Positions 12,158 through 34,428 of a DNA stretch of 36,054 bases are shown piece after piece. Each line of letters begins with the position of its first letter. Position 1 is the stretch's first letter. The notes beneath the pieces were generated by a model. It worked only from the letters and a program-made list of their open reading frames with translations, did no database searches and had not been told where the DNA came from. A program made the position numbers and the translations under genes. This stretch comes from a virus, in IMG/VR virus record IMGVR_UViG_3300037808_000692, positions 1 to 36,054 of that record. One strand, written 5' to 3'.

Positions 12158-13088
12158 TTAATTAGCGTAATCTTGATCATCGTTATCCCCAGCGATTGGT
12201 ATTATCTCACAAGTGTCGTTATTACAAAACTTGTCGGGTTCAGCTTCTTCACCTTCAATACCGGCGAAGCTTAACTTTCCTAATTTCGAAAGCATTTTAT
12301 TGTATTTTTTTTCATCAATTTCCTCATATGGCATTTGTCTATAAGCCCCATACTCATGTCTCGGTAATAATGATATCCCTTTTAACTTGTATTGAAAATA
12401 TTCAAGTACATGTGGTAGTTGTGTAGATTCAACTGCAGGATTAAATGTTGCTGTACAACTTACTTGATTGTCTGCCCAATGTCTCTGTAAGAATGCTGCT
12501 AGGCTGAATTGTTCCCATATAGATAGTTCTCCTACAGTTCGAATTCCTTCACCAATATCAATTGGAACCTCAACAACTACTGTCGAATCTTCACTACCAA
12601 ATGCTGGTTCTAAATTGTAGTTTGCTTTCTTTAACGACTCTATCAATTCTGATTGTTTAGATAATCTCATTCGTCGTATATAAAATCTACTTTCCGGATA
12701 GTGCATTCCTGGAGTAGCTCCTACTAATAAACTAACAGTTCCAGAAGGTTTAATGCTACTCAACTTTATACTTCTTGGTACAGCTAACCAATCTGAGTAC
12801 ATCTTATCCCATTTCGTTAGCTCATTATACCCTTCTTCACACCACGTTTTTAAAGAATCCAATCCCCTATTAGTAACAAATTGTGCTATACCACTCATCG
12901 ATGTACCAATTCTTCTATTTCTCAGCATAACTCGATTGGTGTCAGGCCAGTGTGTTTTTCCTAATGTAACTGTTTTTGCATATAAGTATGCATACTTTAA
13001 TGTCTTCTTATAATCTTCTAAGTCGTCGTGGTGGTGTGGGAAAGTTTCCACAAGACAACATAATTCATAAGATTCTAAACTTTGTTCG
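12158..13088 (-). CDS. nrdJ: NrdJ class II ribonucleotide reductase, C-terminal exon
   Basis: The frame continues upstream of the GTG at 13051 to 13088, reading EQSLESYELCCLVETFP, the conserved segment right after the catalytic cysteine motif of B12-dependent reductases. A stop and a group I intron lie immediately upstream, so this is an exon, not a free gene. It covers the C-terminal half of the barrel (TVSLLVGATPGMHYPES, KPSGT) and ends near a CNNDTC pair matching the redox-active tail cysteines. Joined to the exon-1 codons (Cys-Leu) it supplies 311 residues; with the 360-residue N-extein the mature enzyme would be about 671 residues. Confidence 0.93.
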
Positions 13089-13263
13089 CTTTTTACGGAT
13101 TGTATCAGTAAACTTTCAATCTATAAGGTGGACTGTCGCATCTTCATTAGAAGTTTCTCCGCTCAGTCTCTCACGCTGGCTTTACCCTTGCGCCCTGTCG
13201 GCGTTTCACTCGCCTTCCAAGTCAATCAGGAGAAATTTATACTACCCCGGGACTTGTTAGTTA
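13089..13263 (-). ncRNA. Group I intron in nrdJ, 175 nt, no ORF
   Basis: The sequence between IntC-Cys-Leu and the downstream exon folds as a compact group I intron. The exon end CTGCCT (13269-13264) pairs with internal guide GGGTAG (13247-13242), with U.G at the splice site, forming P1. TTTCTCC and GGAGAAA form P3, GAGACTG (13170-13164) and CAGTCC (13135-13130) form P7, and ACTTC-TAAT-GAAG forms P8. The last intron base is G at 13089. Removal restores the reading Cys-Leu-Glu-Gln-Ser-Leu, as expected for NrdJ. No endonuclease lies inside it. Confidence 0.9.
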
Positions 13264-13376
13264 AGGCAGTTGTGGATTAATATATTATTAGCCACAAAAT
13301 TGTGATTATTTTCTACACTCAAATCGTATACGTCTTGATTTTTATCATGTAATATTGTTTTAAGCAATCTTCCCAT
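13257..13376 (-). CDS. nrdJ: NrdJ split-intein C half (IntC) plus first C-extein codons
   Basis: A 39-codon frame starts at ATG 13376 with GGAGA ten bases upstream and overlaps the endonuclease gene end. It reads MGRLLKTILHDKNQDVYDLS, then VENNHNFVANNILIHN, then Cys-Leu. The block F/G ending VxNNHNFxANxILxHN followed by Cys is the C half of a split intein like NrdJ-1. In unspliced RNA translation stops two codons after the Cys; intron removal joins it to the C-terminal exon. The product would be an IntC-NrdJ(C) protein that trans-splices with the N-terminal half. Confidence 0.92.
   Translation of the reverse strand: MGRLLKTILHDKNQDVYDLSVENNHNFVANNILIHNCLN
13269..13376 (-). mobile_element. 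Split intein C fragment of nrdJ (36 aa)
   Basis: This is the 36-residue IntC, ending in the penultimate His and terminal Asn (IHN) that cyclises during splicing. The next codon, TGC, is the +1 nucleophile and also the thiyl-radical cysteine of the reductase. Confidence 0.92.
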
Positions 13377-14409
13377 AAGATTTAATCTCCGTTAAATAAT
13401 TGTTAATTGAACTAAAGTATTTTTCGATACTTTTTTTAGTAATCCCAAAGGTTTTTGGAACAGCTTCAGTTTTATTTTTTCTCTCTATTATGATATTATT
13501 AATATCAGTAATCTCTTTTATGTTGTATAATTCAAGTAAAACCCCATACTTTAACATTTTAGTTTTATATGAATTAATTGAACTATTTTTTGGTAATGGT
13601 TTTCGTGGTTTACCAATCAAATTATTGTATCTATTAGTGCATCCATTCTTTTTACACGTTTTTCTATCGATATCGCTTACAATCCTGTATTCGAATACAT
13701 CTCCACAAATAATACAATTAGATACTTTTATTGGATCAGTTATATCCTTTCCTTCCCAAAATAATTTACTCTCTTCCTTGCGTTGTGCTGATATTATCTC
13801 CCGCCTTTTCATACCATCTGGTGTATTATAAAAAGCACGTATAGATTTGCTAAGTCTATCAGTATATTTTTTATCAGATGCCCGTTCGGCTGTTTTTTTT
13901 CCAATTTTAAGTTTAGTTTCATCTGAAGATGTCGTGCCGTATCTTGGATTGTTTTTACCTCTCATATCCACAGTTTTATGGTTTTTAATAGAAGCTTCAA
14001 TCCATTCTTTAACACCATTTTCAAGTTTATATTTTTTAACTATTTTGCTAATGTGTTTATCCCACACTACCAAATACCGTATTCCGATATTTCCAAACAA
14101 TTTATTGTATTTATAATAATAATCCATAGCTTCTTTTTTAGAGCTTTTGACTTCTATAATTGTTCTAATTTTATCATTAACAATATGAAAAAAATCAGGC
14201 TTGTAACTTTTACCATCAAATTCGTATATTTTACTTTCATATAAAAATGACATATTAGCTATATCCAACCATTTAGCAATAACAAATTCACATTTACTGC
14301 GTAAATAATATTTTTTATTATCTTTTGTTGTATAATACCCGACATAACTTCTATGATTAGTATCACCTCTCTTAATTTTCCCATGTTTTTGTTCACAATA
14401 TGTTTTCAT
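13360..14409 (-). CDS. Homing endonuclease, PD-(D/E)XK + NUMOD3 type, between intein halves
   Basis: The 349-residue protein sits exactly between IntN and IntC of nrdJ. Its N-terminal domain has Glu41 (SKCEFVIAKW), PD at 71-72 in YKPDFF and EVK at 86-88, a PD-(D/E)XK active site. GKNNPRYGTTSSDETKLKIG near 150-170 is a NUMOD3 DNA-binding element, and CIICGDVF...CKKNGC near 233-260 is a four-cysteine zinc module. It would cut intein-less nrdJ alleles and drive spread of the split intein. The layout matches the fractured genes described from marine metagenomes. Confidence 0.85.
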   Translation of the reverse strand: MKTYCEQKHGKIKRGDTNHRSYVGYYTTKDNKKYYLRSKCEFVIAKWLDIANMSFLYESKIYEFDGKSYKPDFFHIVNDKIRTIIEVKSSKKEAMDYYYKYNKLFGNIGIRYLVVWDKHISKIVKKYKLENGVKEWIEASIKNHKTVDMRGKNNPRYGTTSSDETKLKIGKKTAERASDKKYTDRLSKSIRAFYNTPDGMKRREIISAQRKEESKLFWEGKDITDPIKVSNCIICGDVFEYRIVSDIDRKTCKKNGCTNRYNNLIGKPRKPLPKNSSINSYKTKMLKYGVLLELYNIKEITDINNIIIERKNKTEAVPKTFGITKKSIEKYFSSINNYLTEIKSYGKIA

Positions 14410-14487: not shown

Positions 14488-15882
14488 TTATGTTATTATT
14501 TTAATATTATCATCTTCAGTTAAATCTTTAGCTTCTACATACCCCTTATTGGTTGTATAGACTTTATGGTCAGGGGTACAAGTAAGTTTATAGATATTTC
14601 CATCTTCTTCAATCTCTAACGTCATGATAGAAACATCCTTTCTGCTTAACCAAGCGTTAGTAATAACATTGTATTCTAATGATAGAGTATTTTCATTAAA
14701 AGTTAATGCTTTAATTTCTTCACCGTTTTTTACCAGTTCTACAACTTCTTCAACGGTTAATTTACCTTTATCAGTATTAACTAATGTATCACCAACTACA
14801 CATGGATTTCCACCAGCTACCCTATGGTCTTTATTATCACCACCATTTTTCATACGAGAATACTTTCTCATATTATCTAACCACGCAATTCCAGGTTCAC
14901 CATTATCTACTATTCGTTTACATATATCAGTATAATCCATTCCTAATTCAGCGAATACTGAGTTATTGGAAGTCCATCCGTAATCTTCCCTATGAGGGTT
15001 TTTCTTGTAATTCTTTAGATCTAAATATTCTTCTGAGTGTGGATCTCCAAATACAATCTCAGCTGTGCGCCTTACATTACCGGCCACTACACACTTACCA
15101 ATCAAATTCATGATGTCCACAATTGTAGTTACTGTAATTGGTTGTCCTATATTGATGTCTAATATTTTTTTAATTTTATTATTAATTTCCTCTAATGGAT
15201 CAGGACCACTACTAATTCCCCCAAATCCTTTAATGGGTTCTCCCAACCCTCTGATTAACGAGTAATCAAATTCTACATCTACAGTTCCTACGAAGTAGCT
15301 ATCCAACACCATCTTTACAGATTCTACCCAACCTTCTCGTGTATCTGGAATCCGAAATACATTGGATGTTTGTGATAAGTTTAATTTGGGACCTTTAATA
15401 ACAATCTCACCAGCACCTTTTGTATCGAAACCGACACCCACTCCTAACATAGAAGCGTCCATTAGGAATGTGAATGGTTTAGATAAATCTTCCTTAATAG
15501 TCTTAGTTGAAACGAACGCACAATTGTTAAGTGCTGCGTATAATTTCTTTTCTTCTGTTATAGCAGTTCCCATTGCCCATAACCCACGACCGGGTGGAAG
15601 GAATTTCATACTCCACATTCTCTCGTACATTTCTTGAGCTGAGTTTTGAGCTTGCCATGGATTCCAACCTAATTGGTGCTGTTCAATCCACTGCTTTTGC
15701 ATATTGTAAGTACCTTCTACAACTCGTCTAATAGTTTCCCACCATCTCTCATTTTTACCATTATCTTTGATACGGGAATATGTTCTCATATAAACTAACT
15801 CACCAAGACCATTGAAACCGAATGGTGGTTTTTTTCTTTTATATTTATTTATAAATGATTCCGTTAAAACAAACTTATCCAT
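14488..15882 (-). CDS. nrdJ: NrdJ class II ribonucleotide reductase N-terminal half fused to IntN
   Basis: Residues 1-360 are the N-terminal part of an adenosylcobalamin-dependent ribonucleotide reductase of the Lactobacillus RTPR type. They include WWETIRRVVEGTYNMQKQ, FLPPGRGLWAMGTA near 94-107, redox Cys121 (NNCAFVST), CVVAGNVRRTAEI and ending GGNP. From residue 361 the protein is an intein N fragment (CVVGDTLVNT...TCTPDHKVYTTNKGYVEA) that stops after 104 residues. The enzyme makes deoxynucleotides for phage DNA. The start is ATG 15882 with GGAGAAC upstream. The remaining half is encoded 1.1 kb downstream, so activity depends on trans-splicing. Confidence 0.95.
   Translation of the reverse strand: MDKFVLTESFINKYKRKKPPFGFNGLGELVYMRTYSRIKDNGKNERWWETIRRVVEGTYNMQKQWIEQHQLGWNPWQAQNSAQEMYERMWSMKFLPPGRGLWAMGTAITEEKKLYAALNNCAFVSTKTIKEDLSKPFTFLMDASMLGVGVGFDTKGAGEIVIKGPKLNLSQTSNVFRIPDTREGWVESVKMVLDSYFVGTVDVEFDYSLIRGLGEPIKGFGGISSGPDPLEEINNKIKKILDINIGQPITVTTIVDIMNLIGKCVVAGNVRRTAEIVFGDPHSEEYLDLKNYKKNPHREDYGWTSNNSVFAELGMDYTDICKRIVDNGEPGIAWLDNMRKYSRMKNGGDNKDHRVAGGNPCVVGDTLVNTDKGKLTVEEVVELVKNGEEIKALTFNENTLSLEYNVITNAWLSRKDVSIMTLEIEEDGNIYKLTCTPDHKVYTTNKGYVEAKDLTEDDNIKIIT
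14491..14802 (-). mobile_element. Split intein N fragment of nrdJ (104 aa)
   Basis: The fragment starts with Cys1 right after GGNP. It contains block A CVVGDTLV and block B LTCTPDHKVYT (TxxH), and ends in DLTEDDNIKIIT before the stop. Its sequence pattern is close to the NrdJ-1 fast split intein family. The C fragment is at 13269-13376. Confidence 0.93.
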
Positions 15883-17446: not shown

Positions 17447-18503
17447 TATATTCTTTAGCTAATCTATTTAACTTAGACCACGATTGATTTAACCAAGATT
17501 CGAAATTGGGTATACCATTAAACATTCTATCCTTCATGAATTCTAATTGGAAATGTGGTTTATTTAAGATAGGAACCTTCCCTCTAACTATATCATTGAT
17601 CTTCAATTTTGCATTATTTGATATGTCAACTTCATGTAACTGCATTAATTTGTAATTTAGTTCTAATTGATCTTTAGAAGCTACAACATTTCTAAATATT
17701 TTCAATAAATCTTTATTCTTTTCTGAAAACTCTAAGAGGTCTTTGATATTAAATGCATTATTCTCATCTAAAATACCCGGAAATCTTTTCTTAATTGTTT
17801 TAAATCCTGCACCTTGTACTCCAGGAATATTATCTGATTTATCACCTTCCATCACTCTACCCATCAGAAAATTTATGCATGGGATGCCATACTCTTCAAA
17901 TAAATTGTCAGGCTTATATAACTTTTTCTTAGTAGGGCTCCATACACTAATTCTATCATCTACCAATTGTAAAAAATCTTTATCTGAAGACATTAATATA
18001 ATATTATTATTTGATTTGTTTAAAATTTGTTTAGTGATGTAAGCCATAGTATCGTCAGCTTCTATATTATCGATAGCTATAGTGCTTATAGGTAAAAACT
18101 CTAAATACTTTGATACCATCGATAATTGCATCATCATATTTTGGCGCTCATCAGCATGAGAATTAAAATTTGATACTCTATTGAGTCTAGATTTAACTTT
18201 TCTGTTAGCTTTATAATCTGGATACAATTTACGGCGACGGACGGACCCACCCTTACCATCAAATACGATGATACATCGAGTGGGTCCTAATAATTTCACA
18301 GCATAACCAACTGATTTTAAAAAACCTACTATTCCCCCAATGTGAACTCCATCTTCATTGAGAGTAGGTATAACGCTAAATACTCGTATAAAAGTATTTA
18401 ATCCATCTATAATCAGTACTTTATCATTAATGTCCCCTGTGTCGGACTTCCCGCCATGTTTTTTTATTTCTTCTAATATCGATAAATATTTATCATTACT
18501 CAT
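17436..18503 (-). CDS. 5'-3' exonuclease / RNase H, FEN-1 family (T4 Rnh-like)
   Basis: This 355-residue protein has the FEN/5' nuclease acidic centre: KVLIIDGLNTFIRVF near 28-42, CIIVFDGKGGSVRRRKLYPD near 78-97, the IEADDTMAYI cluster near 143-152, MSSDKDFLQLVDD near 170-182, and the helix-hairpin-helix region GDKSDNIPGVQGAGFKTIKK near 220-239. It removes RNA primers and 5' flaps on the lagging strand, with gp32 and clamp as likely partners. Its ATG overlaps the UvsX stop by eight bases. Confidence 0.93.
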   Translation of the reverse strand: MSNDKYLSILEEIKKHGGKSDTGDINDKVLIIDGLNTFIRVFSVIPTLNEDGVHIGGIVGFLKSVGYAVKLLGPTRCIIVFDGKGGSVRRRKLYPDYKANRKVKSRLNRVSNFNSHADERQNMMMQLSMVSKYLEFLPISTIAIDNIEADDTMAYITKQILNKSNNNIILMSSDKDFLQLVDDRISVWSPTKKKLYKPDNLFEEYGIPCINFLMGRVMEGDKSDNIPGVQGAGFKTIKKRFPGILDENNAFNIKDLLEFSEKNKDLLKIFRNVVASKDQLELNYKLMQLHEVDISNNAKLKINDIVRGKVPILNKPHFQLEFMKDRMFNGIPNFESWLNQSWSKLNRLAKEYNGS

Positions 18504-18927
18504 CGCCGGTCACATCTTCAGTAAATTGAACATCATCTATACCCAAATTTGCAGTTTTATATTGCAACACCATTTTATCACATATCAAATCATAGAGATA
18601 GTTTTTTAGTCCATCAACTTCAGCTAGTTTTAATTCAAACTCCTTTGATAGAAATTTCACATCTTTACCATTGTAGTTTACAGTATACCACGCTCCACCT
18701 TGTTTGATCAAATTATGCTCTTTTAGCACTGTCAACCATCCACCGTAATTATCAATTCCTTTATCAAAGTACATATCATAATCTGCATGACGTAGTGGTG
18801 GGCCTAATCTATTTTTAATAACTTGAGCTCGACATTTCATTCCTAGTACGTTCTTCTTAGCGGTATCTTTAATTTGACCCATATTTTTTAATCTAAGTCT
18901 AGTAGATGCGTGGAATGGTAATGCTTT
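18496..18927 (-). CDS. uvsX: UvsX/RecA-like recombinase, C-terminal exon
   Basis: The frame encodes KALPFHASTRLRLKNMGQI, then VIKNRLGPPLRHADYDMYF and GGAWYTV, the C-terminal core strands of phage RecA/UvsX. It would restore TTSGGKALPFHAS when joined to exon 1. The frame stays open further upstream through an apparent ATG at 18978, but those residues (MRNYKMYNLNDYTITKL) are the 3' end of a group I intron, not protein. Exon 2 starts at 18927 and supplies 143 residues ending in an acidic tail. The mature recombinase would be about 367 residues, near T4 UvsX (391). Confidence 0.93.
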   Translation of the reverse strand, partial: KALPFHASTRLRLKNMGQIKDTAKKNVLGMKCRAQVIKNRLGPPLRHADYDMYFDKGIDNYGGWLTVLKEHNLIKQGGAWYTVNYNGKDVKFLSKEFELKLAEVDGLKNYLYDLICDKMVLQYKTANLGIDDVQFTEDVTGDE

Positions 18928-20120
18928 CAATTTTGTTATCGTATAATCATTTAAATTATACATCTTATAATTTCTCATAAGTTCGGACTATATCTTTACC
19001 AAAATTTTGAATTAATTTTAATACATTCTTCTCTGTTATATCAGATCCAAATATACGACATACGTTATATCCACATTCTTTTATTTCATTCAAACGAATA
19101 TTATCTTTATCCCATACTGATTGAGCTGTTACTACTCTATTTCCTGGATATTTAATTAATTCATCTGAATCGTATTTCTTTGGATTTGCATGCCAATAAT
19201 CACCATCCACTTCAAATACTAAATTGAAGTCTGGTAAATAAAAATCGACATAATATGCTTTTATTTTATCGTATTGATGTATATAGTTTATACCGCTATC
19301 TTCCAAAATACTTTTTACTTTTAATTCAATTTTAGTATTTCTAGAACCGCCAGGTATTTTATTTTTATATTTCCAATTCTGTAATCTTAGATCAGCTTCA
19401 TCTTTTCCATATTTTTCAAACCACCTTTGCCAATTAGATTTTCCATAATGGTGATGAGCTGAACCTGTAATTGAACTCCACATTATACTTTCTGGATGAT
19501 CGTTTACGTATTCTTTCATCACTTTACTGTGATTTTTTCTATATTCAGCACTTTGAACTGCTTTTTTTACAGCATCCTTTCTTTTCTGAGAATGTCTACT
19601 TATGTCGTTCATTTTACGGCAATGGTTTTTATTACCATCAGAATAAATCCATTTTGCAAATTTATCGAAATGTGCGTTGGAAATCATTTTTGAATTTGGA
19701 AATGATAACTTATATTCATCAGTTGTCATTTTATGTTTAGTTTTTAAATGTGTATTTGTGATTGATTTAAAATCTGTATTACACAATTCACACTTTATTA
19801 ATTCACTATTTTGGTATTCAGCGCTCGTGTTATTTTCATCTTCGTTATACATTTTACTCTCCATTATATCTTTATACATATAAATATAATGAAATGGGAA
19901 AACTTTACCCAATTTTTGTATATTAGTTTGAAGATTACTCATATTAGTCTCTGAACCTTATTCTCATCACTGAGAGTCTTGGCTGCTGATTGTCCAATCC
20001 TACTTTTTTCAAACCGTCACGATTGTCATTACTAACTGCGTTGTGGTAAGTTAGGCTATCAGGAGTTTCCAGCAATTCACCGAATGTTTTATAGTGGAGG
20101 CAAAACATTACTTACGCAAT
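18928..20120 (-). ncRNA. Group I intron in uvsX, about 1193 nt, with endonuclease gene
   Basis: Exon 1 ends AGTGGTGGT; it pairs, with one internal mismatch, to the guide GCCTCCACT about 20 bases into the intron, with U.G at the splice site. The intron 5' half carries AATTGCTGGAAACTCC and CAATCAGCAGCCAAG, hallmark P4-P6/J6-7 sequences. P7 is formed by CAGAGACTA (near 19953-19945) and TATAGTCC (18992-18985), which lie before and inside the 3' end of the endonuclease ORF. The last base is G at 18928. Excision joins GGT-GGT to AAA-GCA (Gly-Gly-Lys-Ala), the expected RecA reading. Confidence 0.9.
18965..19942 (-). CDS. Intron-encoded EDxHD (Vsr-like) homing endonuclease
   Basis: The 325-residue protein begins three bases after the 5' P7 strand of the uvsX intron. 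Residues 51-70 (CELCNTDF...HLKTKH) form a C2H2 finger of the MucR/Ros type followed by MTTDEYKLSFP. The C-terminal third has NTKIELKVKSILEDSGINY (Glu206), YYVDFYLPDF (Asp233/Asp238), VFEVDGDYWHANP (His251) and WDKDNIRLNEIKECGYNVCR (Asp280), the EDxHD/Vsr-fold pattern known from I-Bth0305I, also in a recA intron. It would promote intron homing. Its last codons double as intron core sequence. Confidence 0.9.
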   Translation of the reverse strand: MSNLQTNIQKLGKVFPFHYIYMYKDIMESKMYNEDENNTSAEYQNSELIKCELCNTDFKSITNTHLKTKHKMTTDEYKLSFPNSKMISNAHFDKFAKWIYSDGNKNHCRKMNDISRHSQKRKDAVKKAVQSAEYRKNHSKVMKEYVNDHPESIMWSSITGSAHHHYGKSNWQRWFEKYGKDEADLRLQNWKYKNKIPGGSRNTKIELKVKSILEDSGINYIHQYDKIKAYYVDFYLPDFNLVFEVDGDYWHANPKKYDSDELIKYPGNRVVTAQSVWDKDNIRLNEIKECGYNVCRIFGSDITEKNVLKLIQNFGKDIVRTYEKL

Positions 20121-20492
20121 ACCACCACTCGTTGTGTTATGATTTACATATCCATTTGCAATATAATTTTCATTATCTTCTACGGATATATCAACAACAT
20201 TTATTTCATCGTCCACTTTTTTAGCATCTGGATGATTTTTTAGATGCATGTAGCTATTATCACTACATTTTACTCTATGATTTCCTGTACCTTTTAAATC
20301 TCCCAATTTATAATGAGATTTAACTTTAGGTTTAACAAGAAAATCAAGAATTTGTTTATACTCAACATCACCATCATTATTGACTGATTCTACTTCCAAT
20401 CCCATACCACTTAAATCTAATGATTCTGGATTATTGTAGTTCATATCAAATAATTCAGTAAGTTGAGCCATACTAACTGTTTTTTCTATCAT
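20112..20492 (-). CDS. uvsX: UvsX split-intein C half plus exon-1 codons
   Basis: The 126-residue frame starts at ATG 20492, with AGGAG seven bases upstream, and overlaps the N-terminal gene by 20 bases in another frame. Residues 1-119 are intein: GTGNHRVKCSDN carries the block B TxxH, and VVDISVEDNENYIANGYVNHN is block F/G. The extein codons Thr-Thr-Ser-Gly-Gly follow; Ile-Ala-stop is intron read-through. After intron removal the product would be IntC fused to the UvsX C terminus. The independent ribosome-binding site argues for a true split rather than a frameshift error. Confidence 0.9.
   Translation of the reverse strand: MIEKTVSMAQLTELFDMNYNNPESLDLSGMGLEVESVNNDGDVEYKQILDFLVKPKVKSHYKLGDLKGTGNHRVKCSDNSYMHLKNHPDAKKVDDEINVVDISVEDNENYIANGYVNHNTTSGGIA
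20136..20492 (-). mobile_element. Atypical split intein C fragment of uvsX (119 aa)
   Basis: This long C fragment includes block B (TGNH) as well as the terminal NHN, so the split lies N-terminal to block B. That is unlike the usual split-intein break and resembles atypically split phage inteins such as those reported in terminase genes. The +1 extein residue is Thr. Confidence 0.88.
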
Positions 20493-21255
20493 TGGTATTC
20501 TCCTGTGTCATTTGTTGTAATTTATTATGATATTCACCAAAAAAAGGTGAATCTTCATCGTATCGTATCTTAATATTAGTTGTTTCAGGATCAACACACC
20601 ATGGATCTCCAAAGGACACACCTAATTTCTGACGTAGTTGATTAGTAAACACTAAAGCTATTTTCTGCCGTCCTATCATTTGAGTAATCTTTCTTAACGC
20701 TTTTGAGATAATAATAGCCTTTGCTGTAGCCCAACCATCTTTATCAAAATCTGCTTCTAATTCTACTTTAGTAGTTGCTGCCGCTAACGAATCCACTAAA
20801 ATTGTAACTAATCTATCTTTATCGGATTCTCTAACTTTAGTAACGATTTCTTCAATAGCACTAAATATATCTTCTACAGTTTCCAAATGTAGATAGAGCA
20901 TATTAGACACATCTACCCCAATAGCTTCCAAAAACTGTTTGCTAACTGACGTTTCAGTATCCACATAAACTGCCACTCCACCCTTTTTCTGCGTTTCAGT
21001 TAGAATATGTGCTCCTAATAGAGATTTTCCACTGGATTCTAATCCAGTAATTTCAGTGATTCTACCTACTGCAATACCACCATCTTTCCGATTCGATATT
21101 GCTAAATCTAACATCGATGATCCTGTTGAGATAAAATCGCTAATATCTGTAGGTGTACTATCTGTTCCATCTAGAAAGTATGCAACTTTCATATCTTTAA
21201 ATTGTTTATTTATATTATCAGCCAAGACATTAGCTAATTCGTCTCTTATAGACAT
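20473..21255 (-). CDS. uvsX: UvsX/RecA-like recombinase N-terminal half fused to short IntN
   Basis: Residues 1-219 are a RecA-family core: STGSSMLDLAISNRKDGGI near 44-61, Walker A EITGLESSGKS (68-78), the YVDTETSVSK catalytic glutamate strand near 97-106, Walker B VTILVDSLAAAT (150-161), and loop-2 entry TNQLRQKLGVSFGDPW. From Cys220 a 41-residue intein N fragment (CVDPETTNIKIRYDEDS...) runs to the stop. UvsX drives homologous pairing and recombination-dependent replication, so the split falls in DNA-binding loop L2. ATG 21255 follows TAGGAGA. Confidence 0.94.
   Translation of the reverse strand: MSIRDELANVLADNINKQFKDMKVAYFLDGTDSTPTDISDFISTGSSMLDLAISNRKDGGIAVGRITEITGLESSGKSLLGAHILTETQKKGGVAVYVDTETSVSKQFLEAIGVDVSNMLYLHLETVEDIFSAIEEIVTKVRESDKDRLVTILVDSLAAATTKVELEADFDKDGWATAKAIIISKALRKITQMIGRQKIALVFTNQLRQKLGVSFGDPWCVDPETTNIKIRYDEDSPFFGEYHNKLQQMTQENTNDRKNS
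20476..20598 (-). mobile_element. Atypical split intein N fragment of uvsX (41 aa)
   Basis: The fragment starts with Cys directly after GDPW and has a block A-like CVDPETTNIKIR, ending at TNDRKNS. At 41 residues it is far shorter than the 88-105 residues of conventional N fragments. The C fragment follows with a 20-base frame overlap. Confidence 0.88.
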
Positions 21256-32265: not shown

Positions 32266-34428
32266 TTAATTTTGACCTTGGCTAACCATTGCGCCATATA
32301 ATGTTTGATTACCAGCTCCCTGACCACCTATACGTTTTGCTAATGCTCCATTTGGGCCTAGTGCTGTTAGAAGTGCATCTAATTTTTTATTAGTAGTTTC
32401 AAGATCAAACGTACCCACAGTTTCACCTTTATGAACTTTTGCTAAGCCAGTCTCCTCTATAGTACCCCCACCAGATAATGATGGCGTGGAAGTTGGAATT
32501 GGTGTGGTTTCGACATCAGATCCACCCCCAAATCCTAAAAACGATCCAACTGAAGATATAGTTTCTTTAATAGCTTTTATAGCTTCCCACGCTAAGAATA
32601 ATGGCCAAAATGCTAGCATTAATGCTTTTTTAGCTAAATTCCCAAATCCTCCGAAGTGTTTAGCGAGTAACACCACACCCGCTATTAAAGCCCCAACCCC
32701 TTCTTTAATAGCTTTTATAGCTTCCCACGCTAAGACTAATGGCCAAAATGCTAGCATTAATGCTTTTTTAGCTAAATTCCCAAATCCTCCTAAGTGTTTA
32801 GCGAGTAACACCACACCCGCTATTAAAGCCACAACCCCTAATACAATCCATGTTATTGGATTTGCTAGAAGTGAAGCTGTAAGCCCCCACGATGCTGCAA
32901 CCAAGCCCCCCATTGTACTCAGTAATGCCCACGCCCCTGCCACCATCATAGGTCCAAATACAACAGCTAATATTGCACCAATCATAGGTAAATATGATAC
33001 TATTACAGACAGTGCATCTGCTATATATTCCCATAATAATTGACTTGCCTTTTGTCCAGCATTCATGTTGTTCAATTTTTCCTGATTAGCAACCATCTTA
33101 GATAATTCACCTACACCAACACCTATCGATTCAGCTAACGCTCTTTTTTGGAGTACATTGAGTCTATTAAATTCTTCCACACTACCCATCTGACTCAAAA
33201 TATCAGCAACTGCACCTTCTATATCGTCATTTAACGCTAACCTACGAGCTGCATCATAATTTAAATTTCTACCAATCAACATTGAAGCTTCCATTTGTTT
33301 CTCTATTGAAGATTCGAAATCCAACAATGAATCTGCGATTTTAGTTGAAGTGCCTAGATTCACTCCTAACATTCTTGCTTGAACAGCAGCTCGTGCCATA
33401 TTTTCACCACCATCTTTAGCGTAAGATGCAAAGGTGTCCATATCACCTGCCATATCTTCTAATACAGCTGCAGGAGCAACACCATTAGCTCGGGCTAATT
33501 CACTAGTCATTCTAATAGTACTAAATACTGCTTCATCACTACTAGCGCCCATTGCACCCATACTAGCAAGTAATTTTGCACTCGTATCCGCTGACACTCC
33601 ATACTGAAAGCTTAACATCTTCATGGATATTAAATTTTTAGTAGTTGCTTTTTCTAACGAACCAACATTATCTAATATGGCCTTAGCTTCGTCTCCAAAT
33701 AATGCTATACCAGTACCCATTTGATTAAACGCTAATCCAGTCGACTGCGCGAAATCAAATGCGTTCTTAGCAAGTAATGCAAAGGCGCCTGCTATAGCTA
33801 ATCCAGCACCACGCATTAGTACCATACGACCTTCACTCGTTTCTAATAAGTCCCCCCATCTTTTTACTTTGTTCTTTATTTTTTCAATGGCACCAAACAT
33901 TGATTTATAAGCGTCATCATATTCATCCAAGATATCTTTATTATTGCTTTGAAATTCGTTAATGTCGCCCATAACATTTAATTGTTCTTTTAATGGATTT
34001 AATTGTTCCGCTAATTGTAACCCTTTAAAACCTTCTGCAGCTGCTATCGCGTCTTCTATGGCTACTCTTTGTTGCAACTGATCTGTTAAACTAAGCTCAC
34101 CTGATATAGCGTCGTGTTGAAGCTTTAATTGTTGTTGTTGAATTTCAGCTGCAGCTACTCGACTTTTATCACCTAATAATAAATTCTCAGTTATTTGACG
34201 TTCTAGATTTCTTTGATTGAAAGTACTTTCTACATCGGATTGTTGGCGGTCTGATAAACTTCTTTTGGCTTTTAATTGATTTCTATACATGCCAAGCAGT
34301 TCTTTATTTGAGTTGGACAGTTTACCTTCTTCCATCGCTACTTGTTTAATAGCTGCTACTCTATCTTGTAAAGATTTAATTATCTCTTTATTAGTTTTTA
34401 TATGATCTTTATCTGATTTTGTAGGCAT
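32266..34428 (-). CDS. Tail tape-measure protein
   Basis: The 720-residue protein fits a tape measure: a long helical, Gln/Lys/Glu-rich N-terminal region (residues 1-180, coiled coil likely), an Ala/Gly/Met-rich middle, and several hydrophobic segments near 460-630 (VIVSYLPMIGAILAVVFGPM, ITWIVLGVVALIAGVVLLA). It ends in a flexible Gly/Ser/Thr stretch. It lies between the gp26-like/small-gene pair and the baseplate genes. A 46-residue block carrying a membrane-like helix is tandemly duplicated near the C terminus. T4 gp29 has 590 residues. Confidence 0.8.
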   Translation of the reverse strand: MPTKSDKDHIKTNKEIIKSLQDRVAAIKQVAMEEGKLSNSNKELLGMYRNQLKAKRSLSDRQQSDVESTFNQRNLERQITENLLLGDKSRVAAAEIQQQQLKLQHDAISGELSLTDQLQQRVAIEDAIAAAEGFKGLQLAEQLNPLKEQLNVMGDINEFQSNNKDILDEYDDAYKSMFGAIEKIKNKVKRWGDLLETSEGRMVLMRGAGLAIAGAFALLAKNAFDFAQSTGLAFNQMGTGIALFGDEAKAILDNVGSLEKATTKNLISMKMLSFQYGVSADTSAKLLASMGAMGASSDEAVFSTIRMTSELARANGVAPAAVLEDMAGDMDTFASYAKDGGENMARAAVQARMLGVNLGTSTKIADSLLDFESSIEKQMEASMLIGRNLNYDAARRLALNDDIEGAVADILSQMGSVEEFNRLNVLQKRALAESIGVGVGELSKMVANQEKLNNMNAGQKASQLLWEYIADALSVIVSYLPMIGAILAVVFGPMMVAGAWALLSTMGGLVAASWGLTASLLANPITWIVLGVVALIAGVVLLAKHLGGFGNLAKKALMLAFWPLVLAWEAIKAIKEGVGALIAGVVLLAKHFGGFGNLAKKALMLAFWPLFLAWEAIKAIKETISSVGSFLGFGGGSDVETTPIPTSTPSLSGGGTIEETGLAKVHKGETVGTFDLETTNKKLDALLTALGPNGALAKRIGGQGAGNQTLYGAMVSQGQN
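32563..32838 (-). repeat. 138-bp tandem duplication inside the tape-measure gene
   Basis: Units 32563-32700 and 32701-32838 differ at only three positions that I can see (a/c in aagMataatgg, g/t in cctccKaag, c/a near the end). The unit is 46 codons, so the frame is kept; it encodes ALIAGVVLLAKH, GGFGNLAKKALMLAFWPL and AWEAIKAIKE in each copy. The near identity shows a recent duplication or ongoing homogenisation. Confidence 0.95.

What the first reader, a model, noticed from the sequence alone, without database searches (positions are those of the whole stretch)
18496..21255. uvsX is broken by an atypically split intein and a group I intron 15 bases apart
After GDPW a 41-aa IntN ends at a stop; a new ATG with AGGAG starts a 119-aa IntC that contains block B. 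Only TTSGG of extein follows before a group I intron of about 1193 nt with an EDxHD/Vsr-like endonuclease. Exon 2 resumes with KALPFHAS. The short N fragment is like rare atypical split inteins described from phage terminase genes. EDxHD endonucleases in recA introns are known (I-Bth0305I), but combining an atypical split intein with such an intron in loop L2 looks unusual and could yield a new trans-splicing tool protein family.
Basis: partly seen in the sequence, partly recalled or inferred. Interest (0 to 1): 0.9.

Follow-up and report, generated by a model that had tools for sequence, protein, structure and literature searches.

The report
Split intein beside intron in uvsX
An uncultured phage's DNA-recombination gene is interrupted by a protein-splicing element made in two pieces and, 15 bases later, by an RNA-splicing element; the pair recurs in related phages, and a similar pair sits in a second gene of this genome.

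Summary
Confirmed. On the minus strand uvsX has the parts described: GDPW, a 41-aa IntN, an overlapping 119-aa IntC ORF, TTSGG (15 nt), a 1193-nt group I intron with an EDxHD-type endonuclease gene, then KALPFHAS. It is not a sequencing error. A near-identical contig and three more lineages carry both elements, and the frames evolve under purifying selection. All 79 other loci kept from the UvsX search (best 80 of 411) read GDPWTTSGGK without inserts, which fixes the boundaries. The fused halves model as an intein (pLDDT 89); VidaL, an atypically split intein, is narrowly the top Foldseek hit. The split follows beta-strand 2, and IntN carries a conserved extra helix that a one-piece intein at the same site lacks. 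Intein, spacer and intron appear to travel as one block: contigs with nearly the same genes around uvsX carry a one-piece intein and no intron, and inserts are scattered on the UvsX tree. So this is a new variant built from known parts: an intein-intron doublet with one endonuclease gene. Splicing and homing are inferred.

The parts
20599..21255 (-). uvsX exon 1 / N-extein (219 aa, ends ...FGDPW)
   Evidence: PF00154 RecA E 1.4e-37 and PHROG 97 UvsX-like E 1e-47 for ORF 21255-20476
20476..20598 (-). IntN, 41 aa: about 15 residues of intein beta-hairpin (Cys1) plus a 26-residue tail with a predicted extra helix
   Evidence: alignment to one-piece intein, AlphaFold2 model helix 18-31; dN/dS 0.31 vs L003 over 35 codons
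20136..20492 (-). IntC, 119 aa, own ATG with AGGAG; block B GTGNH, VVDISV, ends HN
   Evidence: PF14890 E 2e-6 (below cutoff), TIGR01443 above cutoff; dN/dS 0.09; intein-fold model
20121..20135 (-). 15-nt C-extein spacer TTSGG between intein and intron; its last 9 nt can pair with the intron's internal guide in P1
   Evidence: 79/79 empty relatives read GDPWTTSGGK; P1 8 of 9 pairs incl. U.G at the splice site
18928..20120 (-). group I intron, 1193 nt, ends in G, phase 0
   Evidence: RF00028 43.0 and 22.6 bits; endonuclease-less homologue 54 bits
18965..19942 (-). intron-encoded homing endonuclease ORF (longest 325 aa; likely start ATG 19852 with GGAG upstream, 295 aa), zinc finger + Vsr-like EDxHD-type nuclease
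   Evidence: PF03852 Vsr 27.2 bits (cutoff 27), ROS/MUCR finger below cutoff; Foldseek top hit 3r3p I-Bth0305I; start read
18496..18927 (-). uvsX exon 2 / rest of C-extein (KALPFHAS...)
   Evidence: PF00154 E 7.3e-10, TIGR02012 E 5.2e-17 for ORF 18978-18499
14491..14802 (-). second doublet: IntN (104 aa) of a canonical split intein at the end of NrdJ N-part (ORF 15882-14488)
   Evidence: PDB 8ubs NrdJ-1 intein E 6.5e-19 over residues 361-461; Cys at residue 361
13360..14409 (-). second doublet: free-standing endonuclease gene between IntN and IntC (349 aa)
   Evidence: PHROG 29037 endonuclease E 3.8e-4; NUMOD3 just below cutoff
13269..13376 (-). second doublet: IntC, 36 aa (MGRLLK...ILIHN), start overlaps the endonuclease end
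   Evidence: sequence and translation
13089..13263 (-). second doublet: probable small group I intron, 175 nt, 5 nt after the intein
   Evidence: spliced product CLEQSLESYELCCLVETFP equals 7 of 9 uninterrupted relatives, the other 2 differ by S to T; core 84% identical over 74 nt to a stretch between two RNR pieces of Roseobacter phage CRP-118; no Rfam hit at E<=1
12161..13088 (-). second doublet: NrdJ exon 2
   Evidence: PHROG 367 ribonucleotide reductase E 6.7e-52 for ORF 13051-12161

Best explanation
uvsX is expressed in two splicing steps. (1) The group I intron removes itself from the mRNA, joining GGT to AAA and fusing IntC-TTSGG to the rest of UvsX. (2) Ribosomes make two proteins from the overlapping frames, exon1-IntN and IntC-TTSGG-exon2; the halves dock, partly through the extra helix at the end of IntN, fold into an intein and trans-splice, giving GDPW-TTSGG-KALPFHAS, i.e. 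intact UvsX. Neither intein half encodes a nuclease. The EDxHD-type endonuclease in the intron probably cuts uninterrupted uvsX alleles at this spot, and repair copies intein, 15-nt spacer and intron together, so the two form one composite mobile unit run by one endonuclease. Shown by sequence: all parts, exact boundaries, selection on every frame, predicted intein fold, and block-wise exchange. Inferred: both splicing reactions (my estimate 0.9) and endonuclease-driven co-homing (0.55).
For: Boundaries: 79/79 loci of the first capped UvsX set have the uninterrupted sequence; in the capped L003-centred set 77/80 are uninterrupted, 2 carry a one-piece intein and 1 is cut off by a contig end after TTS. 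Real split: same +1 arrangement in L003/L004, L005 and L182 with different junction bases; dN/dS of IntN, IntC and endonuclease 0.31, 0.09 and 0.23 between window and L003. Intein: model pLDDT 89, pTM 0.83; the best Foldseek hits are inteins, VidaL 6vgv first at E 2.6e-5; VIA-align Z up to 15.0, VidaL 12.2. Intron. Endonuclease: Foldseek top hit I-Bth0305I, TM 0.71 on target, E 3.2e-4, Z 9.7. Co-mobility: 5/5 contigs (4 lineages) found with an intron-only motif carry the split intein; 4/4 contigs (3 lineages) found by the split IntC carry the intron. L003 and L093 are 96-98% identical in gp32, both exons and the downstream gene, but L093 has a one-piece intein (34% aa identical to IntC) and no intron. 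L003 vs L005: dS 0.43 (IntN) and 0.34 (IntC) against 0.83 (exon 1), 0.60 (gp32), 2.32 (exon 2) and 1.47 (downstream gene); spacer identical 15/15, while L093 differs from L003 at 4/15. UvsX tree: 3 changes of insert state; a single insert-bearing clade is rejected, p-AU 6.7e-7. A second intein-intron pair with one endonuclease in nrdJ of the same genome.
Against: No RNA or protein data exist. Only four lineages carry the uvsX doublet, and several contigs counted are copies of each other. Window, L003 and L182 IntC are as diverged from each other (55-58% aa identity) as, or more than, their exon 1 (60-72%), so most transfers are old or the doublet is partly vertical. Outside the spacer, only two of the five substitutions nearest the insertion (-37 and +6) carry the L005 base, so co-conversion tracts are not resolved. 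The elements are separable: L093 has an intein at the site without intron, L005's intron has lost its endonuclease gene, and Roseobacter phage CRP-118 has the nrdJ-type intron with no intein. P1 pairing is not diagnostic on the exon side: 48 of 79 uninterrupted alleles would pair as well. [quoted passage not shown] The nrdJ intron is not recognised by Rfam. The tree is a quick one on capped samples; the window and L182 sit on long branches.
Confidence: 0.72

Rival explanations
1. Two independent insertions in a conserved hot spot: intein and intron each target the invariant L2 region (and the NPC site of nrdJ) and sit close by coincidence, without joint transfer.
For: Endonuclease-bearing introns and inteins both tend to target conserved sites (passages of PMC2814812). 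L093 has an intein at the site without intron; CRP-118 has the nrdJ-type intron without intein. Intein and extein divergences between the lineages are similar.
Against: In uvsX the split intein was not found without the intron, or the reverse, in two differently anchored searches (5/5 and 4/4 contigs). L003 and L093 differ by both elements at once in an otherwise near-identical background, and the 15-nt spacer changed with them.
Confidence: 0.3
2. Sequencing or assembly error: one intein in one frame, broken by a miscounted base in the A6 run at the junction.
For: The frames differ by +1 and the window junction holds AGAAAAAACAG.
Against: A second contig has identical sequence there (1 mismatch in 6837 nt, elsewhere). 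L003/L004, L005 and L182 have the same split with different junction bases and own start codons, with AGGAGG upstream in L182.
Confidence: 0.01
3. Programmed ribosomal frameshifting at A-AAA-AAC joins the halves, so the intein acts in one piece.
For: The window has the slippery heptamer A AAA AAC in the IntN frame (motif recalled).
Against: A -1 shift gives the wrong frame (IntC needs +1); the junctions of L003, L005 and L182 lack the heptamer; IntC has its own start codon and, in the window and L182, a ribosome-binding sequence.
Confidence: 0.04
4. uvsX is a decaying pseudogene that merely collected insertions.
For: Two insertions and three reading frames in one gene.
Against: Exon dN/dS 0.22 and 0.13, IntC 0.09 between window and L003; intein halves and intron ends intact in the lineages read, though L005 has lost the endonuclease gene.
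Confidence: 0.03

Closest known systems
Atypically split inteins with short IntN: VidaL (16 aa), PolB16 (15 aa), AceL TerL (25 aa), GOS TerL
   Same: Short IntN, long IntC, cysteine-dependent chemistry (VidaL, AceL TerL), intein fold; split after beta-strand 2 like VidaL and PolB16 (positions and lengths from passages of PMC13014065 and PMC10189870; VidaL 6vgv is the first Foldseek hit by a small margin)
   Different: IntN is 35-41 aa because a conserved helical tail of about 20-26 aa follows the beta-hairpin; +1 residue Thr; a group I intron lies 15 nt downstream. I recall, from no call, that an atypically split intein named VidaL UvsX-2 was reported by Neugebauer et al. 2017, so an atypical split intein in UvsX would itself not be new; its insertion site could not be checked
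Fractured genes (Dassa et al. 2009): free-standing endonuclease gene between IntN and IntC
   Same: Phage replication genes, split inteins, Vsr-like endonucleases; the nrdJ locus of this window fits the arrangement, with an NrdJ-1-like intein
   Different: In uvsX the endonuclease is inside a neighbouring group I intron and the intein halves overlap. The paper itself is not held; this description is recalled, its title seen in reference lists
recA group I intron of Bacillus phage 0305phi8-36 with I-Bth0305I
   Same: EDxHD-type endonuclease in a phage RecA-family gene (host gene recalled); top Foldseek match; target of nearly 60 bp (passage of PMC3943268)
   Different: No intein described there, as far as I recall; the phage record was not in the collection, so the full endonuclease was not compared
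[quoted passage not shown]
   Same: One phage gene carrying both element types (passage of PMC3653736)
   Different: The passage does not describe a split intein or adjacent elements
Collaborative homing
   Same: One endonuclease moving a second, nuclease-less splicing element (passages of PMC10448857 and PMC3984707)
   Different: Those cases pair a free-standing endonuclease with an intron; here the passenger would be an intein

Membership tests
Naturally split intein (atypical) | Two separate ORFs for IntN and IntC at one extein site | tested here: met
   same in L003/L004, L005, L182
Naturally split intein (atypical) | Catalytic residues: Cys1, TxxH of block B, HN at the end, Cys/Ser/Thr +1 | tested here: met
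   C1 and TGNH, HN, T+1 invariant in window, L003, L005; read in L182; motif definitions recalled
Naturally split intein (atypical) | Intein (HINT) fold when halves are together | tested here: met
   pLDDT 89, pTM 0.83, chain joined by a frame change; 6vgv and other inteins top the search
Naturally split intein (atypical) | Short IntN | tested here: met
   41, 35, 35, 39 aa; reported range 15-37 aa, so the window's is slightly longer
Naturally split intein (atypical) | Protein trans-splicing activity | not testable with these tools
   needs protein
Group I intron | Conserved core (RF00028) | tested here: met
   window 43.0 bits E 2.8e-9, below the 50-bit gathering score; the ORF splits the core; L005 homologue without the ORF 54 bits
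Group I intron | P1 with U.G at the 5' splice site and terminal G | tested here: met
   8/9 P1 pairs in the window, 9/9 in L003 and L005, but 48/79 empty alleles pair at 8/9 or better too; intron ends TTG|AAA
Group I intron | Self-splicing | not testable with these tools
   needs RNA
EDxHD homing endonuclease | Vsr-like catalytic domain | tested here: met
   PF03852 27.2 bits vs cutoff 27; 3r3p first in Foldseek, E 3.2e-4; Z 9.7 over 95 residues, behind Vsr 1cw0 (Z 10.9) and a mitoribosomal protein (Z 10.4); model mean pLDDT only 62.7
EDxHD homing endonuclease | E-D-H-D catalytic residues | tested here: inconclusive
   E244, H251, D280 and D301 invariant in five aligned endonucleases, not mapped one by one onto I-Bth0305I
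Fractured gene (Dassa type) | Free-standing endonuclease gene between IntN and IntC | tested here: not met
   uvsX halves overlap by 20 nt with nothing between; the arrangement is met in nrdJ of the same window
Collaborative homing | One endonuclease transfers a second element | not testable with these tools
   only consistent sequence signatures

The most novel reading that the evidence does not exclude
Split intein and group I intron form a composite two-layer mobile element: one insertion locus, one endonuclease gene (in the intron for uvsX, between the intein halves for nrdJ), with RNA splicing and protein trans-splicing both needed to restore the host protein. The endonuclease of either element mobilises both by co-conversion, and the uvsX intein has gained a dedicated docking helix on IntN.
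Probability: 0.4. Interest if true: 0.78.

Novelty: new variant of a known kind. Interest (0 to 1): 0.62.

Why it matters
It couples the two kinds of selfish splicing element in one locus and suggests how an intein without its own nuclease can spread: by riding with a neighbouring mobile intron. The natural alleles with and without each element (L003 against L093; L005 with no endonuclease gene) make intein-intron co-homing directly testable. The intein itself is a Cys-type split intein cut after beta-strand 2, with a short IntN whose extra helix may help the halves associate, which is of practical interest for protein ligation.

Tried and rejected
IntN tail as a leftover of an endonuclease start (EYHxKL resembles EYQxNxL): local alignment of the tail with the own endonuclease in window, L003 and L182 placed the best match elsewhere, and shuffles did as well in 347, 155 and 546 of 2000 cases; rejected.

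Mosaic exon 2 in the window as proof of recent homing: in each of the three exon-2 segments compared, the window is closer to the empty clade than to L003; not supported.

RNA folding of the 5' intron part alone: z-score -0.76, uninformative. Rfam default scan of the window: no hit; of L003 and L093: none.

Searches that found nothing: IntC in the INPHARED phage collection and in genome contigs (none of 86 pattern matches confirmed); the nrdJ endonuclease-IntC stretch in phages by DNA. The IntC search missed L182, which the intron motif found, so absence in these searches is weak. The profile search with three IntC sequences returned the four known contigs and L092, a different split intein in a helicase, which I left out of the uvsX counts. 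Mel-JY01 and LR756508 looked as if the match ran past GDPW; both lack the intein. In the structure searches, families that are not listed are not excluded.

Literature: uvsX + split intein gave 0 papers, uvsX + intein 7 papers, of which I saw passages of one; other searches are. Of the papers cited I saw passages only. No description of an intein-intron doublet in uvsX was seen, but the library lacks most subscription papers and, Dassa 2009; Neugebauer 2017 was not looked up by id.

Rows dropped: 7 of 157 relatives were too short or cut for the tree and identical rows were merged, leaving 110 rows plus outgroup; searches used the 110 without the outgroup. Counted as split-plus-intron against all else, the tree needs 4 changes rather than 3.
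Full report
WHAT IS THERE. The window is a whole IMG/VR virus record with T4-like replication genes: DNA polymerase, clamp loader, DnaB-like helicase, exonuclease, ssDNA-binding protein and UvsX, all on the minus strand. uvsX reads: exon 1 to FGDPW (21255..20599), a 41-residue IntN beginning CVDPETTN (20598..20476), a stop, and an IntC frame whose ATG (20492) lies inside the end of IntN, in the +1 frame, 7 nt after AGGAG. IntC is 119 residues ending NHN (20136). Five extein codons TTSGG follow (20135..20121), then 1193 nt (20120..18928) with a 325-codon ORF, then KALPFHAS (18927).

IS IT REAL. The first UvsX search kept the best 80 of 411 loci; one is the near-identical contig, and the other 79 (L007-L085) all read GDPWTTSGGK in one frame. 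In a second capped set of 80 centred on L003, 77 are uninterrupted, 2 have a one-piece intein and 1 stops at a contig end after TTS. Removing intein and intron from the window therefore restores exactly the sequence of its relatives. The same double interruption is in contig 3300042102_000095 (1 mismatch in 6837 nt, away from the junction), in 3300025584_000281 and 3300004111_000145 (identical to each other over 5816 nt), in 3300009451_000004 (L005) and in 3300047491_000241 (L182): six contigs with the window, four lineages. The junctions differ: TAG after an overlap of 20 nt in the window, TAA then ATG one base later in L003 and L005, AGGAGG and a shorter overlap in L182. Between window and L003, dN/dS is 0.22 for exon 1, 0.31 for IntN (35 codons), 0.09 for IntC, 0.23 for the endonuclease and 0.13 for exon 2; dS is 1.1 to 3.4, so values are rough. 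Sequencing error is excluded in practice.

THE INTEIN. IntC matches Pfam's intein splicing domain (E 2e-6, below the curated cutoff) and NCBIfam's C-terminal intein motif above cutoff. The halves, read as one chain by a frame change, fold confidently as an intein (pLDDT 89, pTM 0.83). Foldseek ranks the VidaL intein 6vgv first (E 2.6e-5), just ahead of other inteins; VIA-align gives Z 15.0 to PI-PfuI and 12.2 to VidaL (rank 29), so the fold is an intein's but the nearest relative is not settled. Loci L093 and L094 carry a one-piece intein at the same site. Aligned to it, IntN supplies only the first 15 residues, IntC resumes at the first helix, and IntN residues 16-41 have no counterpart. The split is therefore after beta-strand 2, as described for VidaL and PolB16, not after helix 1 as in the TerL inteins (passages of PMC13014065). 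The tail is conserved in all four lineages (DE[DN]S.F[YF].EYH.KL) and modelled as a helix, residues 18-31. I infer a role in bringing the halves together; this is not tested.

THE INTRON. RF00028 matches the 5' core at 43.0 bits (E 2.8e-9) and the 3' core at 22.6 bits; the endonuclease ORF separates them. In L005 that ORF is almost wholly deleted and the intron matches over the full model at 54 bits, above the gathering score. L003 and L182 give partial matches below it. The last nine exon bases pair with the guide sequence, 8 of 9 in the window and 9 of 9 in L003 and L005, with U.G at the splice site; the exon side of that helix is the TTSGG spacer itself, which is so conserved that 48 of 79 empty alleles would pair as well. 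DNA similar to part of the intron core occurs in 168 of 50,697 phage records, so the ribozyme is of a common kind. The encoded protein has a ROS/MUCR-like finger (below cutoff) and a Vsr-like domain; its model is weak overall (pLDDT 62.7), but the nuclease domain finds I-Bth0305I first in Foldseek and at Z 9.7 over 95 residues in VIA-align, behind Vsr at 10.9. No close relative is in the phage collection: 80 records match it, all under 60% identity.

HOW IT MOVES. Five observations suggest that intein, spacer and intron travel together. First, a scan with an intron-only DNA motif returned five contigs and all five carry the split intein, including L182, which no intein search had found; the IntC search returned four contigs and all four carry the intron. 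Second, L003 and L093 share near-identical neighbours and exons (96-98% nt), yet one has split intein plus intron and the other a distant one-piece intein and no intron. Third, between L003 and L005, synonymous divergence is lower inside the intein (0.43 and 0.34) than in gp32 (0.60), exon 1 (0.83), the downstream gene (1.47) or exon 2 (2.32). DNA identity is 0.902 for the intein, 15/15 for the spacer and 0.953 for the 5' intron, against 0.83-0.84 upstream and 0.74 in exon 2; the 3' 110 nt of the intron gave 0.864 in one alignment and the last 83 nt 0.96 in another. Fourth, the L003 spacer equals L005's and differs from L093's at 4 of 15 bases. Fifth, on a quick UvsX tree the insert state changes three times, and a single insert-bearing clade is rejected, p-AU 6.7e-7. 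Against this, the five substitutions next to the insertion in L003 agree with L005 in only two cases, IntC identity between window, L003 and L182 (55-58%) is no higher than exon-1 identity (60-72%), and the tree has long branches and capped sampling.

A SECOND DOUBLET. The same window holds a fractured nrdJ: NrdJ N-part with an IntN like NrdJ-1 (8ubs, E 6.5e-19), an endonuclease ORF, and a 36-residue IntC. Five coding bases after the IntC a 175-nt intervening sequence begins, and the reading frame resumes to give NP-CLEQSLESYELCCLVETFP; all nine relatives examined are uninterrupted here, seven identical and two with T for S. By eye it has a possible P1 and a GACUG/CAGUC P7, and its core is 84% identical over 74 nt to DNA between two ribonucleotide reductase pieces of Roseobacter phage CRP-118, but Rfam does not recognise it. 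CRP-118 shows no intein there. Thus in one genome two genes each carry a split intein with an intron 15 or 5 nt downstream, and each pair has one endonuclease gene, in the intron in one case and between the intein halves in the other. Whether other phages have the nrdJ doublet could not be seen: of seven contigs with the uvsX doublet or one-piece intein, only L005's contig reached an RNR gene, a distant one.

VERDICT. All parts are of known kinds; a phage gene with both intron and intein is known (SPbetac2 nrdE, passage of PMC3653736), as are atypically split inteins, EDxHD-type endonucleases in introns, and fractured genes (the last recalled; paper not held). What is new to me is the tight, recurrent pairing with signs of joint transfer, and the helical IntN tail. 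I recall an atypically split UvsX intein from Lake Vida in the literature, which no call could confirm. I rate it a new variant of a known kind.

Noticed in passing
window 15882-12161 (-): Fractured nrdJ with NrdJ-1-like split intein, endonuclease gene between the halves and a 175-nt probable group I intron 5 nt after the intein.
   Followed up: partly
L005 2503-3999: uvsX of this contig has a further split intein at the P-loop (GLEQ|SGKS) with an apparent IntN of only 13 aa (CVTEDTLIDVIIE) and a short ORF weakly resembling TnsA nuclease (below cutoff) in the gap.
   Followed up: no
L005 6311-8047; L093 3775-5855: Helicase gp41 split at its P-loop by a split intein with an ORF weakly like Vsr/DUF559-type nucleases, or its remnant, after the N half.
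   Followed up: no
L192 (same contig as L005): Ribonucleotide reductase pieces with more split-intein halves; by eye this 24-kb contig holds about five split inteins.
   Followed up: no
L093 2473-2670: 65-aa ORF weakly resembling a nuclease C-terminus (below cutoff) directly downstream of uvsX in the allele with the one-piece intein and no intron.
   Followed up: no
L092 3355-5861: By eye, a helicase gene split by a canonical split intein whose N-part ORF runs on into an endonuclease-like stretch.
   Followed up: no
window 8897-8121 (-): QueE-like radical SAM gene (phrog_2076, E 8e-42), possibly for modified DNA bases.
   Followed up: no
window 32563-32839: Two copies of a 138-bp repeat, 97% matching, in the tape-measure-like gene.
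   Followed up: no
window 30193-27731 (-): 820-aa protein with no PHROG match at E<=0.001.
   Followed up: no
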